A DNA stretch of 64,000 nt from Chrysogorgia sp. JL179-B06 (lineage: Eukaryota; Cnidaria; Anthozoa; Scleralcyonacea; Chrysogorgiidae): positions 7,594,001 through 7,658,000 of the forward strand of contig JAYKKM010000428.1 of the NCBI GenBank assembly GCA_035772405.1. The letters are read 5' to 3'. Positions 3,120-57,194 of the stretch are shown piece by piece (position 1 is the stretch's first letter; every line of letters starts with the position of its first letter). The notes below the pieces were generated by a model, which was not told the DNA's origin, did not search any database, and saw only the letters and a list, made by a program, of their open reading frames with translations. Both the position numbers and the translations under genes were made by a program.

Positions 3120-3289
3120 AGTAGTATAGCAGGTGGGGCTGCGAGCCCAATCGACGTCAACCATTAATATAAATACCAAAACATCACCAAATTTGTGCCA
3201 AGTCGCGACTCGACAAATTTGGTGATGTTTTGGTATTTATATTCACAATTAACGTCGAATAAGCTCGCAGCCCCACCTGCTATACTACT
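3120..3289. repeat. 170-bp terminal palindrome of P1 (left)
   Basis: The outer arm (3120 to about 3200) is repeated inverted from about 3209 to 3289, centred near GTCGCGAC. The inner arm again ends in the terminal word AGTAGTATAG. The innermost 30 bp of each arm are nearly perfect complements. A single strand could fold into one long hairpin. The same structure occurs at 57025-57194. Confidence 0.88.
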
Positions 3290-3787
3290 ACAGCAATCGT
3301 TAGTCAAGCTAGACACCCCTCCCACGTTTTCTACTAAATTGATGTCAAACACACGCGAGACTAACGAAACAATACCAAATTATGACTCTCGCTAAATTTG
3401 GTATTATTTCAGCCACATTTAAAAATAGAAAGTGTCGTTTCAACATTTTCGCAAATTTATGTCAAATTACATTTAGGAAAAATAGAAAGTGTCATTTCAA
3501 CATTTTCGCATATTTAAAAAAAGAATGTGTCACTTCATCATTTTCACATATTAAAAAATAGAAAGTGTCATTTCAACATTTTCGCATTTTTGTTCAACAA
3601 ACTACAACAGACGCGTTCTGCTGTTGTCTCAATTCATGCGCGAAAAAAAAACCACCAGATTTTGACTCTAGTGATGTTTTATCCAAATGGATAGCGAAAT
3701 GGTGCTCTTTTGATTGGCTAACAACATTGACTAACAAATAGCCAGTTGTTTTGCAAATTAGTCCGTTTGCTCGCTATTTTCAGTGGT
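3120..3787 (+). repeat. P1 left terminal inverted repeat
   Basis: About 670 bp matches, inverted, the right end 56435-57194. The outer 170 bp are a palindrome. The middle (about 3420-3600) has four degenerate units of 37-55 bp, each containing AGTGTC and ATTTTCGC-like words. The inner end runs into the last codons of the polymerase gene. The right copy is longer because of a small internal duplication around 56500-56630. Confidence 0.88.
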
Positions 3788-6700
3788 GTCTCTCGCTTCA
3801 ATGTTTTTGTGACCATATGCGTAGGAGTCAATGCCATTTTCTAAAAGGTATCGTTTGTCATCAAAACAGGATAGCGACACTTTATTAATTTCGTAACTAC
3901 CTAGCTGATGTTTGGCACTTCTAATGGTCTTCATTATGTGTCGCAACTGTTTCTGCTCGAGTAACACACTTTTGTAATCTTCGTGTCTGATTACCTTTTT
4001 AATTATATTCTTTCTAATACCTTTAGCGGTTTTCCCACCACCTCCATCCTCTTTCAAATAGCTGTACATTTTACTGCGCAACCCAACGAACTCAATAATT
4101 GGTGTTCCAGCGCACTCGTCCTTCATCTTCCCAATAACTTTCTTATTCTCTTTAAAAGCGAACGGGTTGTCTGCGGGGTAATCGCTATTGTCAAACTTTT
4201 CGCGCTCCATCATAAAGTCAGAGTATAGACGTCGCCAGTTTTGATTGAGTACAACAGACTGTCAGTGTCAGTGAAGTGTAGTCTACAGGTGTCGCTAGAG
4301 TACTTTTTCATAATATAATTATAGTGGAAATTATACATCAGCGTTTTGCTCAAGTCTAGTATGCACATACCCACGTATGCGGGTCTATTTAGTGTCAGCG
4401 TTTCTTTAACTTTGTGGACAGCAACTAAGTTCTCGCTAAATATCTTGCAAGACACAAACGTTGGCTTTGAGACAAGCTTTTTAAATTTCTCCGCAGTGGT
4501 CACTAATCTTACGTCCACACGCTTCCTCAAGATTTCCATCGTTTTTCCGAACACACTGTTATTCATCAGCTTGAAGAAGTCCTTCTCAAAAGCGTTCTTA
4601 GCCGCAGTTCTTTTGACTGTGTTAAAGTCGATGTACTTACCCAACCACTTGGACTGATCAAATTGTAGGACCCTATGAACCTTTTTGATTTTTAATCCAA
4701 GATCTATGTACAACTGCAGATTTCTATAGTGACACACATACTTTTTTTTGTCCATCAAATTAGTCACCAACTTCTTCACGCCGCCAACACTCACATTAAA
4801 CTTATTTTTGATTTTCGTGCAGTACTCCGACAACATGTCAACAGTTATTTCCATCTTCTCAGGAGCCACTGCATGGGTAATCGTTATGCAGGTCATGCAA
4901 ATGGTCTGGATACTCCAAGTCGACTTCGAGCAGTAAGCCCTTTTTACTATTGTTGTGATAGTCGCATAGATTAACCTTTTCTATTTCTTTCTTAGTCAAC
5001 CATTTAAAACCGCCCGTAGGTAGACTTCGACTCATTGCCCATCCATACAAATTGTTGGCATCAAGGTACATCAAATACTTCGACTCTTGCGCTTTATCAT
5101 ACCCCTTCATGTACTTATTATTCGCCACGCCATGTCTGTTGCATATGTAGCTCACACCACCACGCATGCCCATTTCTACGAACTGGAACATGTCAATGTC
5201 GGACAATAATTCGAGTTCCACTCCAGTCATCTTTAACATGGCATCCCAAGCCAATCCAGGCGACGTGAAATAGTGGCACGGGTCTAATTTATACTCGCGA
5301 TGACATGTCTTTCTAAAGTTCTCAAAAACATCAGCGAGCAAGAGCACATCGCTTTTCAAATACAGGTCGTGATACCCACCCATACTTTCAACGTCGAAGT
5401 AGTCCCACACATCGCAAGCACGCTCATGCATTTCTTCCGTAATATGCTCGTCATTCAGAATATTGTAAAAGTCCTTTTTGGAGGGTAGCTCGCATTCATC
5501 GAATTTATCAAAGGAGTCCATATAATCGTAGGGGTAGACTCCCTTTCTTGTCATAAGTGCCAACCCCTCATCGTGAAACACTTCTGACGTGTATTTGAAA
5601 GCGTCCCTTGGTAGGTTCCTCACCAAGTTGTCTAGACCACTACCCATGAACTGAAAGCTGTCCAAAAATACCAAGTTTTTTCCAAGCATGAACGCCATGT
5701 ACTTCTCCATGTTGTTCGGTATCACATTTATGTCTTGACCAAACTTGCCAATCTCCTGCATAATGAAATGGCTATCGTAACCGCGTAAGTTATGAAAGAT
5801 CACAGGAATTTTATCAGTCAATCTAAAGTTCACGTTACAGTGACGATGTGCGGACCCTCTGTACTTACCTGACACGTGACAGTGGTCTCTCACTCTATCG
5901 TCAGTGCTAGCATGGATAGTAAATAGACTGGATAGGAAACTGGATGGCGTCAGCGTGAAAACCTAGTTGCAATTCGTGATGTCACGAAGATGTCACGAGT
6001 ACACAGATTTTACTGAGTTTCTCTTCGACTTCTCCATATTTTCGTATTCAAGTAGCTATATTGAGATTCCAAAATGTTTCATCGTCTTACAAACCTGCCT
6101 AAGTCACGACCAAATGATCGAGGTAAATGTTGTTCGTCTTTGTTTCAGCTGTTTTCGTTTTGTGGTGAAGAAACTGGCGTCGCAAAACTACCGTTGTTTT
6201 CGTTGAAATTTGCGACGCGTTTTTCACCGTCTAAAGTTGGATCTTTTCGCCTAAAATGAGTAATGGTAGTCGGATATTCCATCGTAAAGTGGCATTGTGA
6301 TATTTTTTGGTAGTTTGACTATCATTTTTAGCTGTATTATTGCTAAACGTTGCGATTTATGGTGATTTTGTGACATCACGATTTGCAACTAGGTTTTCAC
6401 GCGACCAACTGGTGCCTAAACCAATCAGCATGCTGGAAACGTCGCACGTGATCTTAGTTTCCTATCCAGTCTATTTACTATCCATGGTGCTAGTGTACTC
6501 AACACTGCAAATGTGACAACTTTTAGCCTCATCAAAGTCTTGTCTATCATCATCAGTCAGTATCATTTCTTTGTTAAAGTGACTCTCAGATGTTTCTTTA
6601 CAATATTCGACAATTTCTAACATCTCCTCAATGAACTTATTAACTGCATTTTCACCACGGTACACTTTTACTGGCTTACTATACTCGTCGTCGTAGCAAC

Positions 6701-10478: not shown

Positions 10479-11037
10479 ATGAGAAAAGTTGGTAAACTAG
10501 AAATCGTGATTGGTCCCATGTTTGCAGGAAAAAACTCTTCGTAGGTTAGTCACGTTAAGTAAGTCAGGGCTCAAAGTCCTTTACATGAACAACACAGGTG
10601 ACACTAGGCGAACTGACCATGCGTTCTCCACACATCGTCAGACCATTGTTGTCGGGTCAGACAGTTTACCTGCGAAGTTAATCACCAACCTTCCGAGTTC
10701 TTCCGAAGTAACTGACTATGACGTCATTGGCATTGACGAAGGTCATTGGTACTCTGATCTACTCCCAGTTATTCGTGGCTACGTCAAAGCTGGCGTTCAC
10801 GTTATTATTTGTGGTCTCATAACAACGGAGCACTTAAAAAAACTTGGTGAGCTTGGCACATTGTTCCCAATGGCAGACGACATCACATTTCTAAAAGCGC
10901 ATTGCGTCGTTTGTCGTGACACTTACGGAACAGCTGTTGACGCGCCATTCAATTGGAGATATAACCCAGGACCATCATTCGTTGGTGGTGCTGAGCAATA
11001 TCGTGCAGTGTGCAGACGTCATCATCCTTCCACATAA
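10479..11037 (+). pseudogene. P1 thymidine kinase, frameshifted at the P-loop
   Basis: A type II (TK1/poxvirus-like) thymidine kinase, which phosphorylates thymidine to raise dTTP supply. The ATG at 10479 gives VGKLEIVIGPMFAGK, the Walker A loop. The frame then shifts at an A6 run (about 10529-10534), with roughly two residues missing against the family. The rest reads on in another frame: IGIDEGHWYSDLLP (Walker B/DEG motif), VIICGL, the zinc half-site CVVC, VGGAEQY (substrate lasso) and CRRHH. The end matches the usual family end. The upstream word is GTATAGTAACC. Slippage on the A6 run is a less likely alternative to a mutation. Between 11038 and 11281 I see only a doubtful 37-codon frame (11091-11203). 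Confidence 0.8.
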
Positions 11038-11281: not shown

Positions 11282-12043
11282 CTAAAAAGTCTCTTTACAA
11301 TAGTGTCTCTCGTGGTTACTCAACGCTGATTTATTTTTAAATTTACGAAAACACTGGGGACACTTAAACCCGATGTCAAAGAAATATTTTATCGCTGTAG
11401 TAATAGCGTCGTCGTACGAGTCACACAACAATGTTAGATCACCAGCGGATTTATATCTGAGCAACAGAGAGTCTTGCTCTTTGGATGTCTTGCCTGTGCC
11501 ACCTGGGTTCTTGAACTCAATCACGAGTCCGCTGTGCTGTCGGTTTGCATTAGCAATAATCAAGTCAGGTGTCCCACGTTGGTAACCTTTTTTCCACGAA
11601 TTTACTCTCTTCGCAGAAGTGTCTTGATTTTCACCACAGGCAGCTACCAAAATAGCTTCTGGATAATATTTCCTAAGAAAACCGACGACTTTCGTGTGGA
11701 GATCGAACTCGGTGATCATTTTAAACTGATTGTGTTTGAGACCGACGTCAGCCAAACTTTTTCTAACGCTTGGCAAGACTTCTGAGTGCACCCACCTTCC
11801 GAAGTGTTTCGCACGCTCCATTTTACTTGAGAACACTAACGAGTAGACACCAAGTTCGTTGATAAACGAGGCTTGCTCTATCTTCATTTTACAATCAGGT
11901 TCGACGTGGTCGTTGACTGCATCTTTTGGTCGAGCGTAACCTAGAGCGCTTGCGACTTCTCTTGCTTTGAACCATATGTCACCGTTGTGATTAGCCATCG
12001 TGATTTGGTGACCATCGAATAATTGCACTGAGTTGGTTACCAT
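11282..12043 (-). CDS. P1 BRO-N / PD-(D/E)XK nuclease / zinc-finger protein
   Basis: 253 residues. Residues 1-96 match the BRO-N domain of baculovirus repeated ORFs (DIWFKAREVASALGY and GVYSLVFSSK blocks). Residues 145-225 look like a VRR-NUC-type nuclease: GTPDLII (D160), VIEFKNP (E176, K178) and Q190, the usual D-ExK-Q arrangement. Residues 228-249 form a C2H2-like finger (CPQC...H). This suggests a DNA-binding nuclease. The leader has GCTATAGTA before ATG. In P2/P3 the neighbour on its polymerase side is the 99-residue membrane gene; here the kinase cargo separates them. The domain calls come from motifs, and catalysis is inferred. Confidence 0.75.
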   Translation of the reverse strand: MVTNSVQLFDGHQITMANHNGDIWFKAREVASALGYARPKDAVNDHVEPDCKMKIEQASFINELGVYSLVFSSKMERAKHFGRWVHSEVLPSVRKSLADVGLKHNQFKMITEFDLHTKVVGFLRKYYPEAILVAACGENQDTSAKRVNSWKKGYQRGTPDLIIANANRQHSGLVIEFKNPGGTGKTSKEQDSLLLRYKSAGDLTLLCDSYDDAITTAIKYFFDIGFKCPQCFRKFKNKSALSNHERHYCKETF

Positions 12044-12063
12044 TACTATAGCCTCACAAAAAA

Positions 12064-12204
12064 CTACTCGACATAGGTGTCGGGTTTTTTATAGATCTGG
12101 TTTGTTGTGTACCAATGCAGCAGGTGTGTTTTATTAGTCCTCAGTTTTCTACGTCGTCTGAAAAAGTTTCTAATGTTACGAACCAGTTTTCTAAGCCAAC
12201 CCAT
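12064..12204 (-). CDS. P1 small basic protein (46 residues)
   Basis: A short frame between the BRO-like gene and the next gene. The N-terminal half is strongly basic and amphipathic (GWLRKLVRNIRNFF followed by four arginines). Such proteins can condense DNA or disturb membranes in virions, but nothing here proves translation. P2 and P3 have a different gene at this position. The stop codon falls in a small hairpin (CGACA/TGTCG). Confidence 0.35.
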   Translation of the reverse strand: MGWLRKLVRNIRNFFRRRRKLRTNKTHLLHWYTTNQIYKKPDTYVE

Positions 12205-15594: not shown

Positions 15595-16029
15595 AGTAGT
15601 ATAGGACATGGCGGTACCAGGACAGTTTTCCAAAAGTCGGATATATTTTCAAGGTCAAGTTTCAAGGTCAAGTTCTTGGAATTATTTTTGAGATAATTCC
15701 GAGAATTCCTTAAAAAAGGGGCGTGGCCGAGACGTCTTGAAAAGGACGTGGCCGAGACGTCTTACAAAAGGGGCGTGGCCGAGACGTCTTACAAAAGGGG
15801 CGTGGCCGAGACGTCTTACAAAAGGGGCGTGGCCGAGACGTCTTAAAAAGGACGTGGCCGAGACGTCTTACAAAAGGGGCGTGGCCGAGACGTCTTACAA
15901 AAGGGGCGTGGTCGAGACGTCTTACAAAAGGGCGTGGTCTATTTTTTAGGAATCTATATGATTTTCCAGGAATCAGATCCATTTGGAATCTACACGATTT
16001 GGATAAGTGCGTTGGTACCCTCGTGTTCT
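15595..16029 (+). repeat. P2 left terminal inverted repeat with tandem array
   Basis: About 435 bp matches 50052-50513 inverted. A tandem array at about 15719-15945 has eight units of 25-27 bp, each containing GTGGCCGAGACGTCTT; the right copy has nine. No gene lies between here and 16112. A short frame from the terminal ATGG stops after 27 codons. Confidence 0.88.
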
Positions 16030-16111
16030 ATGCTGTCGTTCTTTTTAGGATCCATGCGTTGGATATATAATATCTAACTTCAACTAGCTTCCGTTTATGT
16101 TGTAATTAGTT

Positions 16112-16645
16112 TTATTCACTTGGGGGTTTACCCTCAGGGGTTTCCTCTCTAGCCATGTGACTAAATACGTGTTTACTAGTTGTCAGTCCACCTGATAACA
16201 ACCCTAGACAGGGGAGGTAGGGGGATATGTACGATATAAGCTTCTCTACATCTCTTTTTAATAGCTGGTCAGTGATCAACTCGTTTTTAAGATTTTCAGG
16301 TGACTCGATAGCGTTGAACCCTCCTAACGCGTGGGCGAACTTGCTTATTAAAAGGTCACAGAGGAACGTGTTCGCTTTCTCCATTCTTTTTACCTCCCAT
16401 TCTTCATAGATCTTATTGATAACTTTAGCTGAGGCCTTTTTAAGATAAGCGACGGATTGGTCTATCTCGCCGTCCTCTGAGAGTCTTCTTAGTTCGTTTC
16501 GTTTATTGTCTACGTCAGTTTGCGGAGTGTCGTCAACTTGTGGTGTATCGATTTGTGGCTCGTTGATCACTTCCTGTTCTGCTTCTCGAATGTCTTCAAT
16601 TAGTTCGTCAATTGTCTCAAGATTTTTTGTCTTACGTTTTGGCAT
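16112..16645 (-). CDS. P2 small acidic protein of the capsid arm
   Basis: 177 residues. The basic start PKRKTKNL is followed by an acidic stretch rich in Glu and Asp (about 10-65), a helical middle with YEEWEVKRMEKANTFLCDLL, and a hydrophobic C-terminal part SYISPYLPCLGLLSGGLTTS. The first 14 bp overlap the ATPase end. Homologues are at 30720 and 55946. The family is unknown to me; its place next to the ATPase suggests a role in packaging or virion structure. Confidence 0.72.
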   Translation of the reverse strand: MPKRKTKNLETIDELIEDIREAEQEVINEPQIDTPQVDDTPQTDVDNKRNELRRLSEDGEIDQSVAYLKKASAKVINKIYEEWEVKRMEKANTFLCDLLISKFAHALGGFNAIESPENLKNELITDQLLKRDVEKLISYISPYLPCLGLLSGGLTTSKHVFSHMAREETPEGKPPSE

Positions 16646-17270
16646 GTCCTATATTGTACGATATGTTTTGTTTTCGCGGAATAACTATTTCGTATGAGTA
16701 TGGATGCCTTAGAAGTATCTCCAATCTTACGTACTCGTTGTCTTTCAACTGCTTTATTATTTTCTGAATTTCCACTTTATCGACTCCGTTGAGATAATCG
16801 TCTACGATAATTTTCATATCGTTTCTGTTAGGGTTGTAGAATGTTACTAACTTTGAGACGTTCTCACTATATGGTTTACTAATTGAGGTTAGTTGTTGTG
16901 TTATGACTATCGTGGATAGGTTGTAGTGTCTAGCACTAAAGGCTAGTTTCACTAGTTCGCTTGTTCTGTTTTTAACGTCCTGCCCACCAGCACAATCGTC
17001 TAGTATTATCAATGAATTGGTGCCTTTATAAATACCAGTCACGTATTTAAGAAATACGTTGACCTTGTCTTGCTCACACTGAATAGCGATGAAGTTTGGG
17101 TCTCTCAAGTATTTCCACTCTGTGTACGTCTTATTCCATTCGAACGTCGGGCATATAAGAATGATGTACTCGAAGTGGTTCGCGTATTCTTTCTCTATCA
17201 TATCCAGTAGGTAGTGTGTTTTACCACAGGCTGTCATACCAACAATTAACATGTTAAAAGGTGTTTTCAT
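16632..17270 (-). CDS. P2 A32-like DNA-packaging ATPase
   Basis: 212 residues. Walker A is GMTACGKT (11-18) and Walker B is SLIILDDC (about 86-93), followed by the arginine-rich SARHYNLSTIVITQQ sensor region. These mark the FtsK/HerA-type packaging ATPase known from Polintons, poxviruses and other double-jelly-roll viruses, which pumps the genome into the capsid. The leader is ATAGTATTCTAT before ATG. It lies between the capsid gene and the small acidic gene. All key residues are present. Confidence 0.92.
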   Translation of the reverse strand: MKTPFNMLIVGMTACGKTHYLLDMIEKEYANHFEYIILICPTFEWNKTYTEWKYLRDPNFIAIQCEQDKVNVFLKYVTGIYKGTNSLIILDDCAGGQDVKNRTSELVKLAFSARHYNLSTIVITQQLTSISKPYSENVSKLVTFYNPNRNDMKIIVDDYLNGVDKVEIQKIIKQLKDNEYVRLEILLRHPYSYEIVIPRKQNISYNIGHAKT

Positions 17271-17287
17271 ATAGAATACTATATGTT

Positions 17288-18531
17288 TTAGTATTGGATT
17301 GATTGTAGATCGTTGTTGATAAGGTTTACGAGTCCGTCGGAGAGTACGAATATTCTACACATAACGTTCGCTGTTGTGACTTTTTTAATGATTTCCATCA
17401 GTATTCCTGACTGAGTGTTCACGATCTTTTTTCCAGTGGCTACTTTCGCGTTATCTTCGATAGATCTAAGGTCAACAACCAAAGCGAAACCGTCTTTGTA
17501 AAACTTTTGGACAGTCATGTGCTGGTCACAGTCTAGTTTTCGTCCAAATAGTCGTTTCGCTTCTACCCATAGTCTTGATTTTGGTATTCCTTGACTGTAT
17601 ACCATATTTGGCACGCCTTCTATAGTAAGTTTGACTGACTCTATATTTGGGTAGACGAACTCCTCACTGTCAGTTAATTTCTTGTCTTATTTGTGAAGAG
17701 TAGAACGATAGCTTTCATTGACTTTCTTGGTAGGTTAATATTTTCGTTCACAAGTGTGGTTCCTTTACCCCACTCCACAGTCTTCATTAGCGTGACGTGC
17801 TCGTACGATAGAGATCTACCGGATGCGTATTGAGACGATACTTCATCAGCGATCTCTTGACTCTCGATAGTTTCGTACTCCAATTCGAGGTTCTCCAACG
17901 TATAACCAGTAACAGCTGATCCAGATTGAGCCACCATAATATCAGTTGCTTTGGGGAGTGTGATTATGTACCTGAGATTATTGTTCATATTATACGGTGC
18001 GTATAAACCGTGATCTTCTAGAATCTTGTCAAGTTGAATCTTTTGTTTAGTGCCGTGAATAGAGAACATCAGACCATCGCTAACTTTTTGTACGTTTCCA
18101 CTGGCCGCGCCACTGTCGTCCTTCGAGATTAACTTTCGAAGGTTCTCGTTTGCTAGGCCGTATTCGATCATAGCCGTTCGCTCTGTTTTAGGTCTCCATA
18201 AATCTCTGTACGTACCGATAACACTCTCACCACAGTTGTCGTACACAGTCTCACCTGCTAGTTTTATAACCAGTTTTTCGGAGAGTAGTCTCGAGAGGTT
18301 GTTAAGAAACCATGATTTCGCGTTCGCACTTTTGAAGTCGAATAGGAGATGGAAACTGGAGGGTACCAAGCAAGTATTACCCTTTGTCTTTGGGATATCA
18401 ATGTATAACTCCTCCTCTGGATTGGCTTTGTTAGGGTTCAGTGTCACAACGTGACGGGTTCTTGTGCCTTTGATAGCAGACATTTCACGACGTCTATATC
18501 CAGGAAGCAACTCTTTCTCACTAGTATTCAT
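17288..18531 (-). pseudogene. P2 major capsid protein, frameshifted
   Basis: Two frames, 17674-18531 (285 residues) and 17288-17614, together match the 412-residue major capsid protein of P3 almost throughout. Compared with P3, five extra bases near 17668-17673 shift the frame in the second half, at a point equivalent to the second jelly-roll. The result is a truncated protein unlikely to assemble. The start follows TATATATAGT. Confidence 0.88.
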
Positions 18532-18555
18532 ACTATATATATTATAACACGTGTT

Positions 18556-19905: not shown

Positions 19906-19911
19906 TATATA

Positions 19912-40472: not shown

Positions 40473-40535
40473 GACGACCTGTTAGACGACCTGTTAGATG
40501 ATCTGTGAGATGACTGTGAGACGGTCTGTGACGAG
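40468..40535 (+). promoter_or_regulatory. P3 CTGTGAG repeat cluster
   Basis: Six related words (CTGTGAG three times, CTGTTAG twice, CTGTGAC once) stand at 12-15-bp steps between the BRO-like stop and the next leader. There is one or more extra unit compared with P2. Confidence 0.55.
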
Positions 40536-40553
40536 ATATCACGTATGGTATAG

Positions 40554-40853: not shown

Positions 40854-40870
40854 AACATATCGTATAATAT

Positions 40871-41104: not shown

Positions 41105-41120
41105 CACGGCGTAATATATA

Positions 41121-41537: not shown

Positions 41538-41565
41538 ACGTAACTATACATGTAGCACTATAGTC

Positions 41566-41841: not shown

Positions 41842-41898
41842 AGCGACACTTAAGTTACCACACCATAGCCTAAAGATACATATAGTATAGTAACTTAG

Positions 41899-42522: not shown

Positions 42523-42540
42523 AACATATAGTATATTATA

Positions 42541-42720
42541 ATGGGAAGACCTAGAATTTACCAAACCAAAGAAGAAGCTTTAAGAGCAGCAAGAGCGCAA
42601 ACTAAAGTGTGGATGAACACTCACAAATGGGTGTGCGAGACATGTGATAGGCCATACCATGTGACCTCTAAATATAAACACCTAAAGACCAAAAAGCATT
42701 TGAGAAGTTTGGAAGCGTGA
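42541..42720 (+). CDS. P3 AT-hook/zinc-finger microprotein (59 residues)
   Basis: Differs from P2 by one residue (KWVCETC). Leader ATAGTATATTATA directly before ATG. Confidence 0.65.
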   Translation: MGRPRIYQTKEEALRAARAQTKVWMNTHKWVCETCDRPYHVTSKYKHLKTKKHLRSLEA

Positions 42721-42824
42721 TTACGTTGTACTAGTATAGTAAATTGTAAAACGACTCTTTTTAGGTAAGGGTCTAAAGAAATAAAACACATCCTATAGTA
42801 TATAGACATAACACGCCGAGTGGG

Positions 42825-45800
42825 ATGGAAAAAACGACACGTCCTAAAAATGACCTAGAGACTAGTCGACATAACGTGTCAAGTATGATGGAAAAAACGA
42901 CACGTCCTAAAAACGACACCTCCACGGTAAAGACCAAGAGTGGTCTTCACCGACAACAAAGTAACACTGGACAAAATCTAACATCACTTTTAGACACACC
43001 AACACCACAACCAACAAAACGTCTACTAAAACCAACACCACACAAACGCAGAACGAGGCCAACACCACCACCACGACCAAATCGCCCACAACTTGGGTAC
43101 AGACAAAAACTAAACGAGTGGTATGATTGGCTAGTCGAACACACACCAGAGTCAATACGAAAGCCAGTCTCTCAAGCCTACAACATGGCGAAAGACAAAA
43201 TCACTAGCCTATACAAAAAAGCAGCGCAAGAACGTCCTACAAGAGCGCCACCACAAGTACCGACAGATGTCGAACCTTTCTCGCCACCAGCACACATTGA
43301 TAGGAACACGCTCCCTACAGTCACACAAGGGCGAGTAGCACTAAAAGGATACACTAGATCGTACAACGTTGAAGTGATATACAGTAAGGATCCACTATCA
43401 CAACTCAACAAAACTAGAGTAGCTGTGGTTCTAACTCTAAGGAAAGACCTAAGACAACTAAGAGGTATAAAACACAACGAGACACTAAAAGTGACTCTAG
43501 AGAAACAATTAGATGGAGATAGAACGACGTTTAAAACCGCGTTCTTCAATAGTGTCACTAAAACAGTAGTTAGTAGTAACGGCATATACGAAACCACAGA
43601 ACAGTCAAGCGAAGAGATAGTAAATCGTATAGCTGTATGGCTATCAGAAGGGTCTGGGTGGACTATACACAATATAGACGACCACTACATAAACGTAGTA
43701 GTGTACAAACCTCTAAAAGGATCCAGCTACATCGAACTACCGTCGGAATTGAGGAACTCATTGAAGGGTCTAATCAACATAAAGAACAATGACGACAAGT
43801 GTTTCATGTGGTGTCACATACTACACAAGAACCCAGTACTCGAGCACCCAGAGAGAGTGTCAAAACATAAGAAAAACACTAACACTGTGGACTACAAGGG
43901 AGTAGACTTCCCAGTGTCAGCGAGACAATACAACAAAATAGAAAAACTGAACAAAATAAACATAAACGTGTTTAGGTATGAGGACAAGCAGCCATACCCC
44001 ATCTACATCTCTAAGAAGAAAAACGAGGACTGTATGGATCTACTGCTAATAACAGAAGACGAGAAACACCACTACGTGTACATTAAGGACTTCAATAGGT
44101 TTATGTACAATCAGTCAAAACATGAGCACAAAAAGAACTTCTGTAGGTACTGTCTCCAATGTTTCAGCACAGTAGACATACTAAAGAACCACATAGAGAA
44201 TTGCATAGTGATTAACGGAAAGCAGGCAATCAAGATGCCAGAAAAAGGAGACAACGTCCTAAAGTACAAAAACTTTCACAAACAACTAGAGGTACCATTC
44301 GTAATATACGCTGACTTCGAGGCTATTACGGAGAAAATCGACACAGCAACGCCCTCTAAAGACAAGTCGTACACTAACGCGTACCAGAAACACACAGACT
44401 GCGGGTACGGGTACAAGGTAGTCTGCTGCTACGACAACAAGCACAGCAAGCCTGTAGAGACGTACCGCGGTAAGGGCGCAGTCAGAAGATTTATGAATAA
44501 AATGCTGCAAGAAGTCGAGTACTGTAAAAAGACAAAGAAGGAACACTTCAACAAGGATATGGTCATGACTTCCGCTGACAAGACTAACTTTAAGAAGGCT
44601 ACCAGATGCCACATCTGTGACAAGGAGTACGCAAGTGAAGACGTAAAAGTTAGAGACCATTGCCATGTCACTGGTAAATACAGAGGCTCGGCACACAACC
44701 TGTGCAACAGGAACTACAGACTGACTGACAAGATACCTGTCATCTTTCACAACCTAAGGGGTTACGACAGTCACTTCATCATGCAGGAGATTAGTGGGCT
44801 AGGGTTGAGAATCGACGTCATACCCAACAATATGGAGAAGTACATGGCCTTCATGTTAGGTAAACATCTAGTGTTTATAGATAGTTTCCAATTCATGAGC
44901 TCTAGTCTAGACAGTCTAGTTAGTAACCTACCAAAAGACTGTTTCAAGTACACGTCTGAGGCGTACACTGAAGGGTTAGAGTTAGTGTCACGTAAAGGCG
45001 TGTACCCATATGACCATATGGATAGCTTCACTAGATTTGACGAGACTGAGTTACCTCCTCAAGAAGCGTTCTACAGCATTCTAAATGATGAGCACGTGTC
45101 AGATGCAGACTACAAGCACGCGCAAAACGTATGGAAAACGTTCAACATTAGGAACATGGGTGAGTACCATGACCTGTACCTCAAGACTGATGTGCTACTA
45201 TTGTCTGACGTGTTCGAGAACTTTAGAAGAATGTGTAAACAGTACTACCAATTAGATCCTTGTCATTACTTCACATCACCTGGACTATCGTGGGACGCTG
45301 CTCTAAAGATGACAGGAGCGAGACTAGAGCTGATGACTGATATTGACATGTTTCAGTTTATTGAGAAAGGAATGCGAGGTGGTGTCTCCTGCATCACGCA
45401 TAGACATGGCAAGGCTAATAATAAATATATGAAGGACTATGATAGTAGCAAGCCTTCAAAATACATAACATACCTAGACGCAAACAACCTTTATGGTTGG
45501 GCTATGAGCCAGTACCTGCCAACCGGAGGGTTTAAGTGGGTCAAAGAATTTGACATCAACAGTCTCAACAAATACAGTGACGACTCAGACAAGGGGCTGA
45601 TACTTGAGGTTGACCTTAAGTATCCAGAGGGACTGCACGACCCTCACAACGACTACCCCTTAGCCCCTGAGAAGATGAGAGTGAGTAGAGACATGCTGTC
45701 ACCATATTGTAAGAAGATAGCAGACAAATTCGGAGTATCTACAGGTGAGGTGACTAAGCTGGTGCCCAACCTACGCGACAAATCGAAGTACGTAGTTCAC

Positions 45801-46772
45801 TACCGAAACCTGCAACTATACATGTCATTGGGTATGACAGTCAGCAAGGTTCATAGGGTGTTACATTTTAATCAGTCTCCATGGCTGAAGAAATACGTCG
45901 ACTTCAACACAGTCAAGAGAACGGCAGCTAAGAATGACTTTGAGAAGGACTTCTTCAAGCTGATGAACAACTCAGTCTTTGGGAAGACCATGGAAAATCT
46001 GAGGAAGAGGGTGTGCGTCAAGCTGATGTTTAACAGTGAGCAACTAGTAAAGTTAGTATCAAAGGCAACGATCGTGAGTTGGAAAATATTTAACGAAAAT
46101 CTGGTGGCAATACACAAGATCAAAGAGACGCTAACGCTTAATAGACCAGCTTACGTGGGAATGTGTATACTCGACCTATCGAAGACACTAATGTACGACT
46201 TTCACTACAACCACATAAAGAAGAAACACAATGCTAAGCTACTATTCACAGACACTGATAGTCTCATGTATGAGATCAAGACGAAGGACGTGTACAAGGA
46301 CATGTTCGAAAGCAAAGAATTATTTGACTTTAGTGGTTATGACAAGACGTCACCATACTTCAACTCCGTGAATAAGAAAGTGATTGGTAAGATGAAAGAC
46401 GAGACATCAGGAGTCCCAATAGTTGAGTTCGTTGGATTGAGGGCGAAAATGTACAGCTACATTAAGGAAACAGGAGACGGCGGCAAGACCGCAAAAGGGG
46501 TGAAGAAAAGTGTCATTAGAAAGAACATAAGACATGACGACTACAAAGACACCCTAGCAAGTAGAAAACAAATGTCTCACACAATGAAAACCATAAGAAG
46601 TATAAATCACCAATTAGGAAGCTATGAGATTAATAAAATATCACTGAGTTGTTTCGACGACAAGAGACACATTTCAGAAGACGGAATATCTAGCTACGCC
46701 TATGGACACTACAAAATAAAAAAAAATAAAAAAATACCCAAAACAATATGTTATAAAAAATCGAATCAATAA
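42825..46772 (+). CDS. P3 protein-primed-type family B DNA polymerase
   Basis: 1315 residues, intact. Approximate positions: duplicated MEKTTRPKND start (1 and 22), Pro/Arg-rich linker (60-95), polymerase N-terminal domain (170-430), CRYCLQCF finger (about 443), Exo I IYADFEAI (490), endonuclease VII-like CHIC...RDHCHVTGKYRG (590-620), Exo II FHNLRGYDSH (640), Exo III YLKTDVLLL (785), motif A LDANNLYGWAM (884), motif B NNSVFGKTM (1047), motif C TDTDS (1142). The last 15 residues are low-complexity Lys-rich because an A-run differs from P2, which stops earlier. The leader has CTATAGTATATAG about 20 bp upstream. It would replicate the element from its termini. Confidence 0.95.
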   Translation: MEKTTRPKNDLETSRHNVSSMMEKTTRPKNDTSTVKTKSGLHRQQSNTGQNLTSLLDTPTPQPTKRLLKPTPHKRRTRPTPPPRPNRPQLGYRQKLNEWYDWLVEHTPESIRKPVSQAYNMAKDKITSLYKKAAQERPTRAPPQVPTDVEPFSPPAHIDRNTLPTVTQGRVALKGYTRSYNVEVIYSKDPLSQLNKTRVAVVLTLRKDLRQLRGIKHNETLKVTLEKQLDGDRTTFKTAFFNSVTKTVVSSNGIYETTEQSSEEIVNRIAVWLSEGSGWTIHNIDDHYINVVVYKPLKGSSYIELPSELRNSLKGLINIKNNDDKCFMWCHILHKNPVLEHPERVSKHKKNTNTVDYKGVDFPVSARQYNKIEKLNKININVFRYEDKQPYPIYISKKKNEDCMDLLLITEDEKHHYVYIKDFNRFMYNQSKHEHKKNFCRYCLQCFSTVDILKNHIENCIVINGKQAIKMPEKGDNVLKYKNFHKQLEVPFVIYADFEAITEKIDTATPSKDKSYTNAYQKHTDCGYGYKVVCCYDNKHSKPVETYRGKGAVRRFMNKMLQEVEYCKKTKKEHFNKDMVMTSADKTNFKKATRCHICDKEYASEDVKVRDHCHVTGKYRGSAHNLCNRNYRLTDKIPVIFHNLRGYDSHFIMQEISGLGLRIDVIPNNMEKYMAFMLGKHLVFIDSFQFMSSSLDSLVSNLPKDCFKYTSEAYTEGLELVSRKGVYPYDHMDSFTRFDETELPPQEAFYSILNDEHVSDADYKHAQNVWKTFNIRNMGEYHDLYLKTDVLLLSDVFENFRRMCKQYYQLDPCHYFTSPGLSWDAALKMTGARLELMTDIDMFQFIEKGMRGGVSCITHRHGKANNKYMKDYDSSKPSKYITYLDANNLYGWAMSQYLPTGGFKWVKEFDINSLNKYSDDSDKGLILEVDLKYPEGLHDPHNDYPLAPEKMRVSRDMLSPYCKKIADKFGVSTGEVTKLVPNLRDKSKYVVHYRNLQLYMSLGMTVSKVHRVLHFNQSPWLKKYVDFNTVKRTAAKNDFEKDFFKLMNNSVFGKTMENLRKRVCVKLMFNSEQLVKLVSKATIVSWKIFNENLVAIHKIKETLTLNRPAYVGMCILDLSKTLMYDFHYNHIKKKHNAKLLFTDTDSLMYEIKTKDVYKDMFESKELFDFSGYDKTSPYFNSVNKKVIGKMKDETSGVPIVEFVGLRAKMYSYIKETGDGGKTAKGVKKSVIRKNIRHDDYKDTLASRKQMSHTMKTIRSINHQLGSYEINKISLSCFDDKRHISEDGISSYAYGHYKIKKNKKIPKTICYKKSNQ

Positions 46773-47013
46773 AAGATAAATTTATAATTTAAGCAATTTA
46801 AACAATTTTAAAATTTAACCAATTTAGTACCAACACGTAGGTCCCACACGGCTGAGCCATGGCAGTCACAAATTCAACCACACACAAAGAACGTAGGGCA
46901 CCAACACACTTTTCCAAATCGTGTAGATTCCTAACGGATCTGACTTTTAGAAAACCATCCTTGTATCGCCATGTTCTACACTACTCTCCAGGCTACAGCG
47001 CTCACACACAGTA
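46773..47013 (+). other. P3 AT-rich gap with relic terminal repeat and hairpin
   Basis: An AATAAA signal and runs of AATTTAA follow the polymerase stop. From about 46903 to 46980 lies a degenerate, internally deleted copy of the right terminal repeat. 46981-47033 is a hairpin with arms of about 21 bp (CTCTCCAGG, AGCGCTCA) that reaches over the next start codon. Confidence 0.55.
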
Positions 47014-47250
47014 ATGAGCGCTGTATCCCTGGAGAGTAGCGTAGAACGTGTGGAACCAGTGGAGGAGAAGACAACGAGACTCAACAAAGAGTTGTTATTT
47101 ATCTACCAGATTAGAGAGCTCAAACGACAACTCTTCGCTAAGAGTAGCTTAGAACGCGAGGAACTAGACGAGAGGTTTAAACACACTGTATTGGGGAAAA
47201 GGATGACCAGTCACAACAGAGAGTTGCGGCTTCTCAGTCATCTCAAATAG
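47014..47250 (+). CDS. P3 terminal coiled-coil protein (78 residues)
   Basis: Highly charged helix-forming protein (SSVERVEPVEEKTTRLNKEL, RELKRQLFAKSS). The P2 copy at 49790 has the same length and high identity, which supports a real gene. No promoter word like the others is visible, and the start lies in a hairpin. No counterpart in P1. The function is unknown. Confidence 0.55.
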   Translation: MSAVSLESSVERVEPVEEKTTRLNKELLFIYQIRELKRQLFAKSSLEREELDERFKHTVLGKRMTSHNRELRLLSHLK

Positions 47251-47301
47251 CTTAAACGATCGACACAAAAACGAAAGAACACGAGGGTACCAACGCACTT
47301 A

Positions 47302-47782
47302 TCCAAATCGTGTAGATTCCAAATGGATCTGATTCCTGGAAAATCATATAGATTCCTAAAAAATAGACCACGCCCTTTTGTAAGACGTCTCGGCCACGTC
47401 CTTCTCAAGACGTCTCGGCCACGCCCCTTTCGTAAGACGTCTCGGCCATGCCCTTCTTAAGGCATCTCGACCACGCCCTTTTGTAAGACGTCTCGGCCAC
47501 GTCCTTCTCAAGACGTCTCGGCCACGCCCCTTTCGTAAGACGTCTCGGCCATGCCCTTCTTAAGGCATCTCGACCACGCCCTTCTCAAGGCATCTCGACC
47601 ACGCCCCTTTTCCAAGACGTCTCGGCCACGCCCTTCTCAAGGCATCTCGACCACGCCCCTTTGTTAAGGAATTCTCGGAATTATCTCGAAAATAATTCCA
47701 AGAACTTGACCTTGAAACTTGACCTTGAAAATATATCTGACTTTTGGAAAACTGTCCTGGTACCGCCATATCCTATACTACT
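47302..47782 (-). repeat. P3 right terminal inverted repeat
   Basis: 481 bp. The array holds eleven units; a four-unit block (about 47373-47476) is duplicated in tandem. Ends exactly at the AAGGCG duplication. A 69-codon frame through it is not considered a gene. Confidence 0.87.
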
Positions 47783-49500
47783 AAGGCGTGTACCCATATG
47801 ACCATATGGATAGCTTCACTAGATTTGACGAGACTGAGTTACCTCCTCAAGAAGCGTTCTACAGCATTCTAAATGATGAGCACGTGTCAGATGCAGACTA
47901 CAAGCACGCGCAAAACGTATGGAAAACGTTCAACATTAGGAACATGGGTGAGTACCACGACCTGTACCTCAAGACTGATGTGCTACTATTGTCTGACGTG
48001 TTCGAGAACTTTAGAAGAATGTGTAAACAGTACTACCAATTAGATCCTTGTCATTACTTCACATCACCTGGACTATCGTGGGACGCTGCTCTAAAGATGA
48101 CAGGAGTGAAACTAGAGCTTGACTGATATTGACATGTTTCAGTTTATTGAGAAAGGAATGCGAGGTGGTGTCTCCTGCATCACGCATAGACATGGTAAGG
48201 CTAATAATAAATATATGAAGGACTATGATAGTAGCAAGCCTTCAAAATACATAACGTACCTAGACGCAAACAACCTTTATGGTTGGGCTATGAGCCAGTA
48301 CCTGCCAACCGGAGGGTTTAAGTGGGTCAAAGAATTTGACATCAACAGTCTAAACAAATACAGTGACGACTCAGACAAGGGGCTGATACTTGAGGTTGAC
48401 CTTAAGTATCCAAAGGGACTGCACGACCTTCACAACGACTACCCCTTAGCCCCTGAGAAGATGAGAGTGAGTAGAGACATGCTGTCACCATATTATAAGA
48501 AGATAGCAGACAAATTCGGAGTATCTACAGGTGAGGTGACTAAGCTGGTGCCCAACCTACACGACAAATCGAAGTATGTAGTTCACTACCGAAACCTTCA
48601 ACTGGTATGACAGTCAGCAAGGTTCATAGGGTGTTACATTTTAATCAGTCTCCATGGCTGAAGAAATACATCGACTTCAACACAGTCAAGAGAACGGCAG
48701 CCAAGAATGACTTTGAGAAGGACTTCTTCAAGCTGATGAACAACTCAGTCTTTGGGAAGACCATGGAAAATCTGAGGAAGAGGGTGTGCGTCAAGCTGAT
48801 GTTTAACAGTGAGCAACTAGTAAAGTTAGTATCAAAGGCAACGATCGTGAGTTGGAAAATATTTAACGAAAATCTGGTGGCAATACACAAGATCAAAGAG
48901 ACGCTAACGCTTAATAGACCAGCTTACGTGGGCATGTGTATACTCGACCTATCGAAGACACTAATGTACGACTTTCACTACAACCACATAAAGAAGAAAC
49001 ATAATGCTAAGCTACTATTCACAGACACTGATAGTCTCATGTATGAGATCAAGACGAAGGACGTGTACAAGGACATGTTCGAAAGCAAAGAATTGTTTGA
49101 CTTTAGTGGTTATGACAAGACGTCACCATACTTCAACTCCGTGAATAAGAAAGTGATTGGTAAGATGAAAGACGAGACATCAGGAGTCCCAATAGTTGAG
49201 TTCGTTGGATTGAGGGCGAAAATGTACAGCTACATTAAGGAAACAGGAGACGGCGGCAAGACCGCAAAAGGGGTGAAGAAAAGTGTCATTAGAAAGAACA
49301 TAAGACATGACGACTACAAAGACACCCTAGCGAGTAGAAAACAAATGTCTCACACAATGAAAACCATAAGAAGTATAAATCACCAATTAGGAAGCTATGA
49401 GATTAACAAAATATCACTAAGTTGTTTCGACGACAAAAGACACATTTTAAAAGACGGAATATCTAGCTACGCCTATGGACACTACAAAATAAAAAAATAA
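47783..49500 (+). pseudogene. P2 DNA polymerase, 3' part with two deletions
   Basis: Continues the gene from 30242. Compared with P3 a 2-bp deletion near 48118 and a 13-bp deletion near 48605 break the frame; together they remove 15 bp, so the end is back in frame. Exo III, motif A (LDANNLYGWAM), motif B (NNSVFGKTM) and motif C (TDTDS) are all recognisable. The stop follows KIKK, earlier than in P3. 49501-49674 is AT-rich, as in P3. Confidence 0.9.
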
Positions 49501-49674
49501 AATAAAAAATACCCAAAACAATATGTTATAAAAAATTGAATCAATAAAAGATAAATTTATAATTTAAGCAATTTAAACAATTTTCAAATTTAACCAATTT
49601 AATACCAACACGTAGGTCCCACACGGCTGAGCCATGGCAGTCACAAATTTAACCACACACAAAGAACACGGGGT

Positions 49675-49756
49675 ACCAACGCACTTTTCCAAATCGTGTA
49701 GACTCCTAATGGATCTGACTTTTGGAAAACCGTCCTTGTGTCGCCGTGTCCTACAC
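49675..49756 (-). repeat. P2 relic of a second right terminal repeat
   Basis: The order GGTACCAACGCACTT, AAATCGTGTAGA, GGATCTGACTTTTGGAAAA, then a decayed outer end follows the real right repeat but without its tandem array. P3 has the same relic near 46903-46980, so it predates their split. Confidence 0.6.
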
Positions 49757-49789
49757 CACTCTCCAAGGCTCCAGCGCTCACACACAGTA

Positions 49790-50026
49790 ATGATCGCTGT
49801 ATCCCTGAAGAGTAGTGTAGAACGTGTGGAACCAGTGGAGGAGAAGACAACGAGACTCAACAAAGAGTTATCATTTATCTACCAGGTTAGAGAGCTCAAA
49901 CGACAACTATTCGCTAAGAGTAGTGTAGAACGTGAGGAACTAGACGAGAGGTTTAAACACACTGCACTGGGAAAAAGGATGACCAGTCGTAAAAGAGAGT
50001 TGTGGCTTCTCAGTCGTCTCAAATAG
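49790..50026 (+). CDS. P2 terminal coiled-coil protein (78 residues)
   Basis: Counterpart of 47014-47250 with about ten substitutions, none disrupting. The frame is also open 52 codons upstream, but that stretch is the relic repeat, so ATG 49790 is preferred. Confidence 0.55.
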   Translation: MIAVSLKSSVERVEPVEEKTTRLNKELSFIYQVRELKRQLFAKSSVEREELDERFKHTALGKRMTSRKRELWLLSRLK

Positions 50027-50051
50027 CTCAAACGATCGACACAAAAACGAA

Positions 50052-50513
50052 AGAACACGAGGGTACCAACGCACTTATCCAAATCGTGTAGATTCCAAAT
50101 GGATCTGATTCCTGGAAAATCATATAGATTCCTAAAAAATAGACCACGCCCTTTTGTAAGACGTCTCGACCACGCCCCTTTTGTAAGACGTCTCGGCCAC
50201 GCCCCTTTTGTAAGACGTCTCGGCCACGCCCCTTTTGTAAGACGTCTCGGCCACGTCCTTTTTAAGACGTCTCGGCCACGCCCCTTTTGTAAGACGTCTC
50301 GGCCACGCCCCTTTTGTAAGACGTCTCGGCCACGCCCCTTTTGTAAGACGTCTCGGCCACGTCCTTTTCAAGACGTCTCGGCCACGCCCCTTTTTTAAGG
50401 AATTCTCGGAATTATCTCAAAAATAATTCCAAGAACTTGACCTTGAAACTTGACCTTGAAAATATATCCGACTTTTGGAAAACTGTCCTGGTACCGCCAT
50501 GTCCTATACTACT
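50052..50513 (-). repeat. P2 right terminal inverted repeat
   Basis: 462 bp with nine tandem units. Ends with GTCCTATACTACT next to GGTGTG. Confidence 0.88.
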
Positions 50514-51608
50514 GGTGTGGAAACAGAACAAGGGTTGAGAGACATCTATTATAGTCCCAAGACGGGGTTCAGTGGTGCAGAGAGGTTGTATCAAAGTGCG
50601 TTGGGAGACGGATTGAAAGTAACTAGAAAAACAGTGAAAAAATGGTTGACAGCGCAGGACACCTACACTAGGTACAAACCCATCGTGAGAAGGCATAAAT
50701 TCCGTGCTACCTTCGTCGGATTTCTTGGTGAAGAGCTTCAAATGGACCTAGTGGACATGAGTAAGTACTCAAAACAGAATGGCGGTTATTATTGGATATT
50801 GACAGGCATTGAAATATTGAGTAGACACGCTTTTGGAATTGCAGTTTATAGAAAAGACACTAAGAACATGACTAAGGCTGTTGGGGAGCTCTTGAATAGC
50901 TTTAAAGATCGGTTTGGAACCACACCTAAGTTAGCGCAATTTGATGATGGGCTTGAGTTCTACAACGTTGGTGTGAAAAGTTTACTGAAAGAACACGGTG
51001 TTGAATATTTCAGCACTAGGAGCGATAAAAAGGCTGCTGTTGTTGAGCGTTTTAATAGAAGTCTCAAGAGCATTATGTGGAAGTACTTTTATGCCCGTGG
51101 AACGTACAAATGGATTGACGTTCTTGACCAGTTTGTGAGCAATTACAATGGCAATGTGAATCGAAGCATTATGATGAAACCGAAGGATGTCAATAAGTCA
51201 AATGAGGGTGAAGTGTGGACCACTTTGTTTGGTCATCATTTTGCAGACACCCCATTGCCAAAGTTTAGAGTTGGCGAGTCAGTGAGAATTAGTAAATACA
51301 AGAGTGTGTTCACAAAGGGCTATGAAGCCAACTTCACTGAAGAGCTGTTTAAAGTGGTAAAGGTTATTCGTGGCGATCCGAATGTGTACGAAATTGAGGA
51401 CATAAGCGGTGAACAGATTATTGGTAAATTTTATGAGCAGGAATTATCGCTGGTCAATAGGAAACATGGCGACGACGTGTACAGAGTTGAAAAGGTGTTG
51501 AAAAGAAAGAAAGTCAGAGGGAAGAAGATGGCGCTGGTCAAATGGTTGGGTTATGAAAGCAAACATAATTCGTGGATACCAGAAAGCGATATTCAAAATG
51601 TGAGTTAG
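50514..51608 (+). pseudogene. P1 integrase, main part (separated from its start by P2)
   Basis: From 50520 on, 362 codons continue the frame begun at 15580. Core motifs are LQMDLVDMS, QFDDGLEF and AVVERFNRSLK, with a C-terminal chromodomain (VEKVLKRKKV...LVKWLGYESKHNSWIP). No other break is seen, so only the P2 insertion inactivated it. A chance upstream frame in the P2 terminal repeat could add an artificial N terminus, which is not an ancestral start. Confidence 0.9.
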
Positions 51609-55942: not shown

Positions 55943-55945
55943 AAT

Positions 55946-56464
55946 ATGGGTATAAGTAATAACGTGATGGTGAAACGCAAAAGTGAAGAAACCCCCACGA
56001 TTGAGGAATTAGTTGAGGATACTCAAGCCGCTGGTACTTCAACTGTGGAAGACGACATTGACGCTAAAAGAGCTGAACTTATTAGACTGTCTGGCGATGG
56101 TGTGGTAAGCCAATCTGAAGCGTACATTAAAAAAACGTCTGCAAAAGTTATCGACAAGATATGGCGCCAATATGAGTTGAAGAGAATGGAAATTGCAAAC
56201 GCTTTTCTCACTGACTTACTAATCAGCAAATTCGCTGGCTTACTAGATGGGTTGAACGCTATTGAGAACCCTGACGAACTAAATGATGAGTTACAAAAAG
56301 ACCCGTTACTAAAGAAAGACGTTGAGAGCATTGTCGCGATTGTGACGCCGTACGTACCTTTCTTAGGCTTGTTGTCGGGAGGAATCACAACGTCGAAATA
56401 TGTGTACGATCACCATTTTAGAAGTGAGGTAACAACCACTGAAAATAGTGAACAAACGGACTAA
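55946..56464 (+). CDS. P1 small acidic protein; C terminus encoded by the terminal repeat
   Basis: 172 residues. KRKSEETPTIEELVEDTQ start, EAYIKKTSAKVIDKIWRQYE middle and PYVPFLGLLSGGITTSKY end match the P2/P3 family. The final TTENSEQTD lies inside the terminal repeat and equals the last residues of the P1 polymerase at the other end. Confidence 0.72.
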   Translation: MGISNNVMVKRKSEETPTIEELVEDTQAAGTSTVEDDIDAKRAELIRLSGDGVVSQSEAYIKKTSAKVIDKIWRQYELKRMEIANAFLTDLLISKFAGLLDGLNAIENPDELNDELQKDPLLKKDVESIVAIVTPYVPFLGLLSGGITTSKYVYDHHFRSEVTTTENSEQTD

Positions 56465-57194
56465 TTCGCGAAACAACCGGCCACCTGTTAGTATGCAAAT
56501 TAGTCAACGTTGTTAGCCAATCAAAAGAGCGCCATTTTGCTATCCATTTGGATACTTATTTGGATAAAACATTCGTTGTGGACGCTGGTGTGAATTGACC
56601 AATCAAAAGAGCGTCATTTCGCTATCCATTTGGATAAACACCACCACTAGAATCAAAATCTAGTGGGTTTTTTTTTCGCGCGTGAATTGAGACAACAGCA
56701 GAACGCGTCGGTCGTAGTTTGTCAAACAAAAATGCGAAAACGACGAAACGACACTTTCTATTTTTTAAATTTGTGAAAATGTTGAAACGACACTTTCTAT
56801 TTTTTAAATATGTGAAAATGTTGAAACGACACTCTCTATTTTTTTAAAAATGCGAAAATGACGAAGCGACACTTTCCATTTTTAAAATATGACTGAAATA
56901 ACACCAAATTTAGCGAAAATCGCGATTTGGTATAAATTTGGTATTGTTTCGTGAGTCTCGCGCGTGTTTGACATCAATCGAGTGGAAAACGTGAGGGGTG
57001 TTTAGCTCAATTAACGACCGCCATAGTAGTATAGAGAGTGGGGCTGCGAGCTTATTCGACGTTAATTGTGAATATAAATACCAAAACATCACCAAATTTG
57101 TCGAGTCGCGACTTGGCACAAATTTGGTGATGTTTTGGTATTTATATTAATGGTTGACGTCGATTGGGCTCGCAGCCCCACCTGCTATACTACT
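56435..57194 (-). repeat. P1 right terminal inverted repeat
   Basis: About 760 bp. Contains four units of about 38 bp with CGACACTTTCTA (56740-56885), a duplicated GATTGG/CTATCCATTTGGAT block, and the outer palindrome. Non-coding apart from its innermost 30 bp. Confidence 0.87.
57025..57194. repeat. 170-bp terminal palindrome of P1 (right)
   Basis: Inverted counterpart of 3120-3289. The inner arm has drifted (AGTATAGAGAGTGGGG instead of AGTATAGCAGGTGGGG), the outer arm has not. Confidence 0.87.

What the first reader, a model, noticed from the sequence alone, without database searches (positions are those of the whole stretch)
3120..57194. Three complete Polintons nested inside one another
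Each element has its own inverted ends beginning AGTAGTATAG and its own exact 6-bp duplication (AGTGGG, GGTGTG, AAGGCG). Removing the inner element restores the reading frame of the outer one in both cases. Nested DNA transposons are known in general; three stacked large virus-like elements in one locus is striking and dates them relative to each other.
Basis: seen in the sequence. Interest (0 to 1): 0.92.

Follow-up and report, generated by a model that had tools for sequence, protein, structure and literature searches.

The report
Three virus-like transposons stacked by chance
Three virus-like jumping elements really are inserted one inside another here, but the genome holding them carries so many such elements that a stack like this is expected; more unusual are two short mirror-image relatives found elsewhere in the same genome.

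Summary
Confirmed: three Polintons/Mavericks are nested (3120-57194 > 15595-50513 > 30243-47782), each with inverted ends beginning AGTAGTATAG and an exact 6-bp target duplication. Unoccupied sites exist for all three, which speaks against an assembly chimera: 7 of 7 sister LINEs examined read through the outer site, 3 of 3 related Polintons covering it through the middle site, and the inner element's own polymerase gene through the inner site. The outer element itself sits in a LINE. The ends are complete; genes of outer and middle carry further lesions.

The nesting is unsurprising in this genome. A polymerase motif occurs 2,822 times in 781 Mb, so Polintons may fill 3-6%; 4 of 55 surveyed elements lie in another Polinton; about 1-11 triple nests are expected. 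A second was largely traced.

The host LINE shows no private substitution in 1,100 bp, yet the outer ends differ by 11% beyond their first 100 bp: end divergence is no clock here.

Most novel: two short palindromic elements with perfect target duplications, resembling integrated copy-back products of protein-primed replication.

The parts
3120..57194 (.). Outer Polinton (19.2 kb of its own DNA in two pieces, 3120-15594 and 50514-57194)
   Evidence: Inverted ends and AGTGGG on both sides; integrase, ATPase, polymerase, capsid homologues
3120..3289 (+). Left end of the outer element: a 170-bp palindrome with AGTAGTATAG at both its ends
   Evidence: the first 141 bases folded as single strand give z -11; the same two-motif arrangement at other family members
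57025..57194 (-). Right end of the outer element, the same palindrome
15595..50513 (.). Middle Polinton (17.4 kb of its own DNA in two pieces, 15595-30242 and 47783-50513), inserted just after the likely integrase start codon of the outer
   Evidence: Inverted ends and GGTGTG; unoccupied site in 3 of 3 related loci that cover it
30243..47782 (+). Inner Polinton, 17.5 kb, uninterrupted, inserted in the polymerase gene of the middle at the place of residue 741
   Evidence: Inverted ends and AAGGCG; homology map
42777..46769 (+). Polymerase (pPolB with an Endonuclease VII-like stretch) of the inner element, open over 1,331 codons
   Evidence: Pfam DNA_pol_B_2 matches the homologous outer piece, not the inner itself
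34606..35724 (-). Integrase (rve + chromodomain), inner
   Evidence: Pfam PF00665, PF00385
31234..31968 (-). A32-type packaging ATPase, inner
   Evidence: Pfam PF04665
31905..33200 (-). Major capsid protein, double jelly-roll, inner
39594..40469 (+). Bro-N + VRR-NUC + C2H2 fusion protein, inner (VRR_NUC just above, zinc finger below the Pfam cut-off)
   Evidence: Pfam
33166..34602 (-). Hypervariable protein with a hydrophobic C-terminal stretch: 46% identical between middle and inner, while its two neighbours (capsid, integrase) are 96-97%
50520..51605 (+). Integrase body of the outer element, cut off from its likely start codon by the middle element
10510..11034 (+). Thymidine kinase, seen in the outer only
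   Evidence: Pfam PF00265 E 9.9e-20; NCBIfam thymidine kinase model below its cut-off
11285..12088 (-). Bro-N + VRR-NUC + C2H2 fusion protein, outer (VRR_NUC and zinc finger below the Pfam cut-off)
   Evidence: Pfam
5909..6488 (.). ~578-bp mobile element with inverted ends in the polymerase gene of the outer
   Evidence: 40 of 2,970 candidates were scored, the window's own included; the rest are 98-99% identical over it
57195..60093 (-). LINE that the outer element interrupts near the 3' end of its reverse-transcriptase ORF (continues leftwards from 3119)
   Evidence: Pfam RVT_1, and an endonuclease match just below cut-off; frames; 7 sister LINEs

Best explanation
Three separate integrase-mediated insertions, in the order LINE, outer, middle, inner, each with a 6-bp target duplication (shown by the sequence). 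The donors were most likely linear, protein-primed extrachromosomal copies of related Polinton families (inferred). The elements landed in one another because Polintons make up a few per cent of this genome; the survey shows neither avoidance of Polintons nor a clear preference for them, though base preference at the target was not tested. The stack is most likely a chance product of a large, partly recent Polinton population. Lesions in the middle and outer polymerase genes were seen in no other listed copy, so they are most simply later decay.
For: Exact ends and duplications. Unoccupied sites: outer, 7 of 7 sister LINEs examined (about 20 near-full matches exist); middle, 3 of 3 related Polinton loci that cover the site, the two flanks overlapping by exactly 6 bp (2 more loci tested do not cover it); inner, the inner element's own polymerase gene with AAGGCG once. 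Load: polymerase motif 1,395+1,427 hits, reversed-pattern control 1; outer-family end motif 867+872, control 0; middle/inner end motif 119+101, control 0. Survey of the 100 listed of 220 middle/inner end hits: 55 elements, 4 inside another Polinton; 30 of 37 end pairs have identical duplications, 4 differ by one base, 1 by two, and in 2 an end was not recognised. 4 of 55 fits random insertion (P of 4 or more is 0.46 at a 6.3% Polinton share, 0.10 at 3.2%). A second three-level nest on another contig. Private lesions: 39 of 39 other listed copies span 660-671 bp where the middle has 651, and 39 of 39 are 6-7 bp shorter than the outer over its polymerase stretch.
Against: No reads were available, so support comes from sequence logic and other loci. 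The 2,822 count includes truncated copies, alleles and nested pieces, so the share could be near 3% or less. The 55 elements are not all independent: C328/C329 look like two haplotypes of one locus, and C8, C231, C266 and C288 share flanks. Only 100 of 220 hits were listed and followed. The four hosting Polintons were recognised only by likeness to the window's own Polinton proteins.
Confidence: 0.88

Rival explanations
1. The nest is an assembly chimera of similar copies.
For: Middle and inner are about 90% and 97% alike in the two pieces of the middle, and the assembly holds what look like separate haplotypes (C328/C329).
Against: A chimera would not create three exact 6-bp duplications at the exact ends, nor unoccupied versions at other loci overlapping by exactly 6 bp. 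The contig is 11.7 Mb. A second nest exists.
Confidence: 0.02
2. Polintons prefer to insert into Polintons or other mobile elements (targeting by the chromodomain, or a safe haven).
For: The integrase carries a chromodomain; all three insertions here are in mobile elements; in the survey 4 of 55 elements lie in Polintons and 8 have LINE-like reverse transcriptase or endonuclease sequence in the flank, of which 4 share flanks.
Against: 4 of 55 is what the estimated Polinton share predicts, and the LINE share of the genome was not measured.
Confidence: 0.12
3. The outer element was already defective when it inserted and was moved in trans.
For: Its ends differ at 52 of 464 positions beyond the first 100 bp, although the host LINE has no private change in 1,100 bp; two short palindromic derivatives that lack most genes have perfect duplications, so mobilisation in trans seems to happen.
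Against: Its frame lesions are in none of 39 other listed copies and can be younger than the insertion; unequal ends alone need not disable it.
Confidence: 0.25

Closest known systems
Polinton/Maverick transposons (Polintoviricetes)
   Same: pPolB, rve+chromodomain integrase, A32 ATPase, double jelly-roll capsid, terminal inverted repeats with the (AGT)2 motif and 6-bp duplications; the last two are described for vertebrate Mavericks in passages read of PMC8097293
   Different: Gene modules point outwards from the centre and integrase shares a module with ATPase and capsid; in vertebrate Mavericks both modules point to the centre and polymerase goes with ATPase. No protease was recognised by Pfam in the ORFs scanned. 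Extra genes: Bro-N/VRR-NUC fusion, thymidine kinase (outer).
OmPLV, polinton-like virus of Oxyrrhis marina (PMC12721341, passages read)
   Different: OmPLV has a tyrosine recombinase and a helicase-pPolB fusion; here rve integrase and pPolB, plus a weak C2H2 match on the fusion protein
Meldviruses such as Meld23486 (PMC11071296, passages read)
   Different: That record was not compared directly
Nested retrotransposons in polinton-like viruses of cryptophytes (PMC12220804; PMC12747079; passages read)
   Same: Mobile elements nested in polinton-like elements, in part disrupting genes
   Different: There the inserted elements are retrotransposons; here Polintons sit in Polintons

Membership tests
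Polinton/Maverick | Protein-primed family B polymerase gene | tested here: met
   DNA_pol_B_2 E 4e-13 in an outer piece; inner polymerase 59-72% identical to the outer pieces. The inner itself gave no DNA_pol_B_2 match. Protein priming was not tested.
Polinton/Maverick | Retrovirus-like integrase (rve), here with chromodomain | tested here: met
   (rve above the Pfam cut-off in the inner, below it in the outer)
Polinton/Maverick | A32-type packaging ATPase | tested here: met
[quoted passage not shown]
   30 of 37 further pairs exact
[quoted passage not shown]
   (model pLDDT 73); the profile found no match by sequence in PDB
Polinton/Maverick | Ulp1/adenain-type protease | tested here: inconclusive
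   No Pfam match in the ORFs scanned; not every ORF was scanned (one search failed) and a remote homologue may be missed
[quoted passage not shown]
Vertebrate-type Maverick architecture | Two gene modules oriented towards the centre | tested here: not met
   Modules point outwards
Adintovirus | OTU-like N-terminal domain in PolB and a Hexon recognisable by BLASTp | not tested
   Definition; no reference sequence was compared
Copy-back defective genomes (for the two short palindromes) | Both ends derive from the same terminus, with an unpaired turn at the centre | tested here: met
   C265: arms 1,793 of 1,800 positions identical, both match the right end. C295: arms 99.2% over 497 columns around a centre of about 160 bp that does not pair; the tips fit either end, the subterminal part reaches further into the right end.
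Copy-back defective genomes (for the two short palindromes) | Produced during replication and dependent on a helper | not testable with these tools
   Needs cells or extrachromosomal DNA

The most novel reading that the evidence does not exclude
The two short palindromic elements (G000:C265, 3,624 bp; G000:C295, 1,151 bp) are integrated copy-back products. A protein-primed polymerase starting at the right end turned back on its own strand, giving an element with two right ends, and a Polinton integrase then inserted it with a perfect 6-bp duplication. They would be genomic fossils of the extrachromosomal linear replication proposed for Polintons, and defective-interfering-like Polintons. The outer element's ends (identical for 100 bp, then 11% apart) would likewise record repair of ends by copying during that replication.
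Probability: 0.6. Interest if true: 0.75.

Novelty: new variant of a known kind. Interest (0 to 1): 0.55.

Why it matters
Polintons are held to be virus-like elements that copy themselves outside the chromosome by protein priming, but direct evidence is thin (recalled). This genome offers up to about 2,800 polymerase copies and at least one family whose target duplications are mostly intact (30 of 37 pairs), so insertion preference, recombination between elements and by-products of replication can be counted. The palindromes with perfect duplications, if confirmed, make the replication model testable from sequence. The LINE comparison warns that divergence of terminal repeats must not be used to date such elements without a check.

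Tried and rejected
Rejected: dating the three elements by divergence of their ends. It would make the outer very old, but its host LINE has no private change in 1,100 bp (95% upper bound 0.27%). Caveats: gene conversion between LINE copies; and outside those columns the LINE was compared only pairwise, from 1 mismatch in 1,168 to 8 in 2,213, with 0-7 gap positions. Rejected: introns as the cause of the largest break in the outer polymerase gene; the gap is a dispersed element with inverted ends. Rejected: ORF 36314-38071 as major capsid protein; its model (pLDDT 70) is largely helical; a fold search with it never ran.

Led nowhere: relatives of the polymerase in viral contigs, none; PDB sequence profile, none; a second haplotype of the window's right flank, no other full match; a census of further short-spaced end pairs, the machine stayed busy; naming the host: the named capsid relatives in the 120 rows shown are all Paramuricea clavata, at 57-66% identity, so a cnidarian is possible but not shown. 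Papers: searches were seen as listings with abstract starts; passages were read of PMC8097293, PMC12220804, PMC11071296, PMC11071308, PMC12721341, PMC6431247, PMC12747079 and PMC10586311. In these I saw no report of Polinton-in-Polinton stacks or of integrated copy-back Polintons; subscription journals are mostly not held, and Kapitonov and Jurka 2006 and the review PMC11426020 could not be read.
Full report
What was checked. The target duplications are exact on both sides. The outer element is itself inside a LINE: the reverse-transcriptase ORF runs from the right flank up to the junction and the matching frame goes on from the left flank, and 7 of 7 other copies of that LINE examined (L001-L004, L006-L008) carry the two flanks side by side with one shared AGTGGG. 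So the stack has at least four levels, with a small ~578-bp element in the outer polymerase gene as one more.

Is it an assembly artefact? Searched separately, the two flanks of the middle element lie next to each other, overlapping by exactly 6 bp, in three related Polintons elsewhere (L108, L012, L098). The inner insertion point is uninterrupted in the inner element's own polymerase gene. Chimeric joining would not be expected to yield these. No reads were seen.

How common is nesting here? The window's own genome is held (781 Mb, 522 contigs). A 27-base degenerate pattern for a polymerase motif has 2,822 matches against 1 in the reversed control. If each stood for a 17.5-kb element, Polintons would be 6.3% of the genome; with half as many, 3.2%. 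Of the 220 hits to the middle/inner end motif the 100 listed were followed: 4 on C58 are not element ends, 2 on C295 were read separately, and the other 94 make 55 elements. Four of the 55 lie in another Polinton: C38 between two genes near ORF 36314, C47 in the capsid gene, C309 in the polymerase gene (one end only), C339 in the ORF 36314 gene. That is 7% (95% interval 2-18%), compatible with random landing. About 1-11 triple nests are then expected. One was largely traced: on C47 a middle/inner-family element sits in the capsid gene of another Polinton, with AACCCT on both sides, and its polymerase gene is split by an outer-family element whose right end is at 6871895; the left end and target duplication of that innermost element were not read. 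In that copy the second part of the polymerase aligns in one stretch, without the 578-bp gap seen in the window's outer element. Other element pairs 37-44 kb apart (C103, C148, C221) were not read inside.

Dating. In 1,100 aligned bases the host LINE has no difference that is not shared with a sister copy; 8 columns vary among the copies. The insertion of the outer, and so of all three, is therefore recent unless gene conversion has renewed the LINE. Yet the ends of the outer are identical for 100 bp and then differ at 52 of 464 positions; a uniform rate would give the clean first 100 bp with probability 7e-6. Of three related outer-family elements, one has ends identical for 500 bp and 14 mismatches in the next 100, one 599 of 600 identical, and one 8 mismatches in 600. 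In ten pairs of the middle/inner family the first 100 bp hold at most one mismatch; five stay alike to about 600 bp and five become unrelated after about 100-300 bp, so the length of the repeat itself varies. The outer's end divergence is thus most likely inherited, with only the tips kept alike, which copying of ends during replication could do (inference).

Mosaic. Synonymous divergence between middle and inner is 0.03-0.06 in the four polymerase pieces, 0.05 in the larger part of the capsid gene, 0.08 in ORF 41899, 0.12-0.51 in ten other comparisons and 0.95 in ORF 33166. One common history would give one value, so the families probably recombine or exchange genes. ORF 33166 is the fastest and carries a hydrophobic C-terminal stretch; a surface role is a guess.

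Decay. The middle's net loss of 15 bp (deletions of 2 and 13 bp against the inner) is in none of 39 other listed copies, and the net 6-bp gain of the outer in its polymerase gene is in none of 39 others. Both searches scored only 40 of about 2,000 candidates. Sequencing error cannot be excluded without reads.

Palindromes. C265 holds a 3,624-bp element with ATTTAC on both sides; its arms agree at 1,793 of 1,800 positions (2 mismatches, 10 gap columns), both match the right end of the middle/inner family to about 2.3 kb inside the polymerase gene, and the centre has an unpaired loop of about 19 bases. C295 holds a 1,151-bp element with TGATTT on both sides and arms 99.2% alike over 497 columns around a centre of about 160 bp that does not pair; in both halves the tips match either end of the parent, but the subterminal part reaches further into the right end. 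Two of 56 elements is a rough frequency. Assembly fold-back could mimic a palindrome but would not be expected to give the flanking duplications. The likeness to copy-back genomes of other protein-primed or hairpin replicators is from general knowledge and was not tested.

Verdict. The nesting is an ordinary result of a heavy, partly recent Polinton load. The more interesting leads are the palindromic derivatives, the tip-only identity of ends and the outward-facing Polinton architecture.

Noticed in passing
L106 (G000:C265:2216487-2220110) and L107 (G000:C295, locus 1501-2651): Short palindromic Polinton derivatives with perfect 6-bp duplications, both ends derived from the right end of the middle/inner family
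   Followed up: partly
G000:C47:6850281-6885904 (L016, L017, L108, L109): Second three-level Polinton nest on another contig
   Followed up: partly
3120-3289 and 57025-57194: The ends of the outer family are palindromes of about 170 bp with the end motif at both tips; many of the listed family members show the same two motifs about 169 bp apart
   Followed up: partly
18559-19911 and 33166-34602: One gene differs strongly (46% identity) between middle and inner while its two neighbours are 96-97% identical
   Followed up: partly
5909-6488: ~578-bp element with inverted ends in the outer polymerase gene, one of many near-identical copies in the genome
   Followed up: partly
51615-52620: Partial tandem duplication of integrase end and ORF 33166 homologue in the outer element
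   Followed up: no
10510-11034: Thymidine kinase gene in the outer element, also in a sister copy on C47 at 92% identity
   Followed up: no
G000:C328 and G000:C329 (L092-L095): Flanks 99.4% and 98.6% alike around a similar Polinton insertion, with the same duplication where it could be read: likely two haplotypes left in the assembly, so counts are somewhat inflated
   Followed up: no
G000:C182:69200-69420 (L103): Element end in which the terminal sequence is partly repeated 69 bp further in
   Followed up: no
63119-63370: TATC microsatellite, about 63 copies
   Followed up: no
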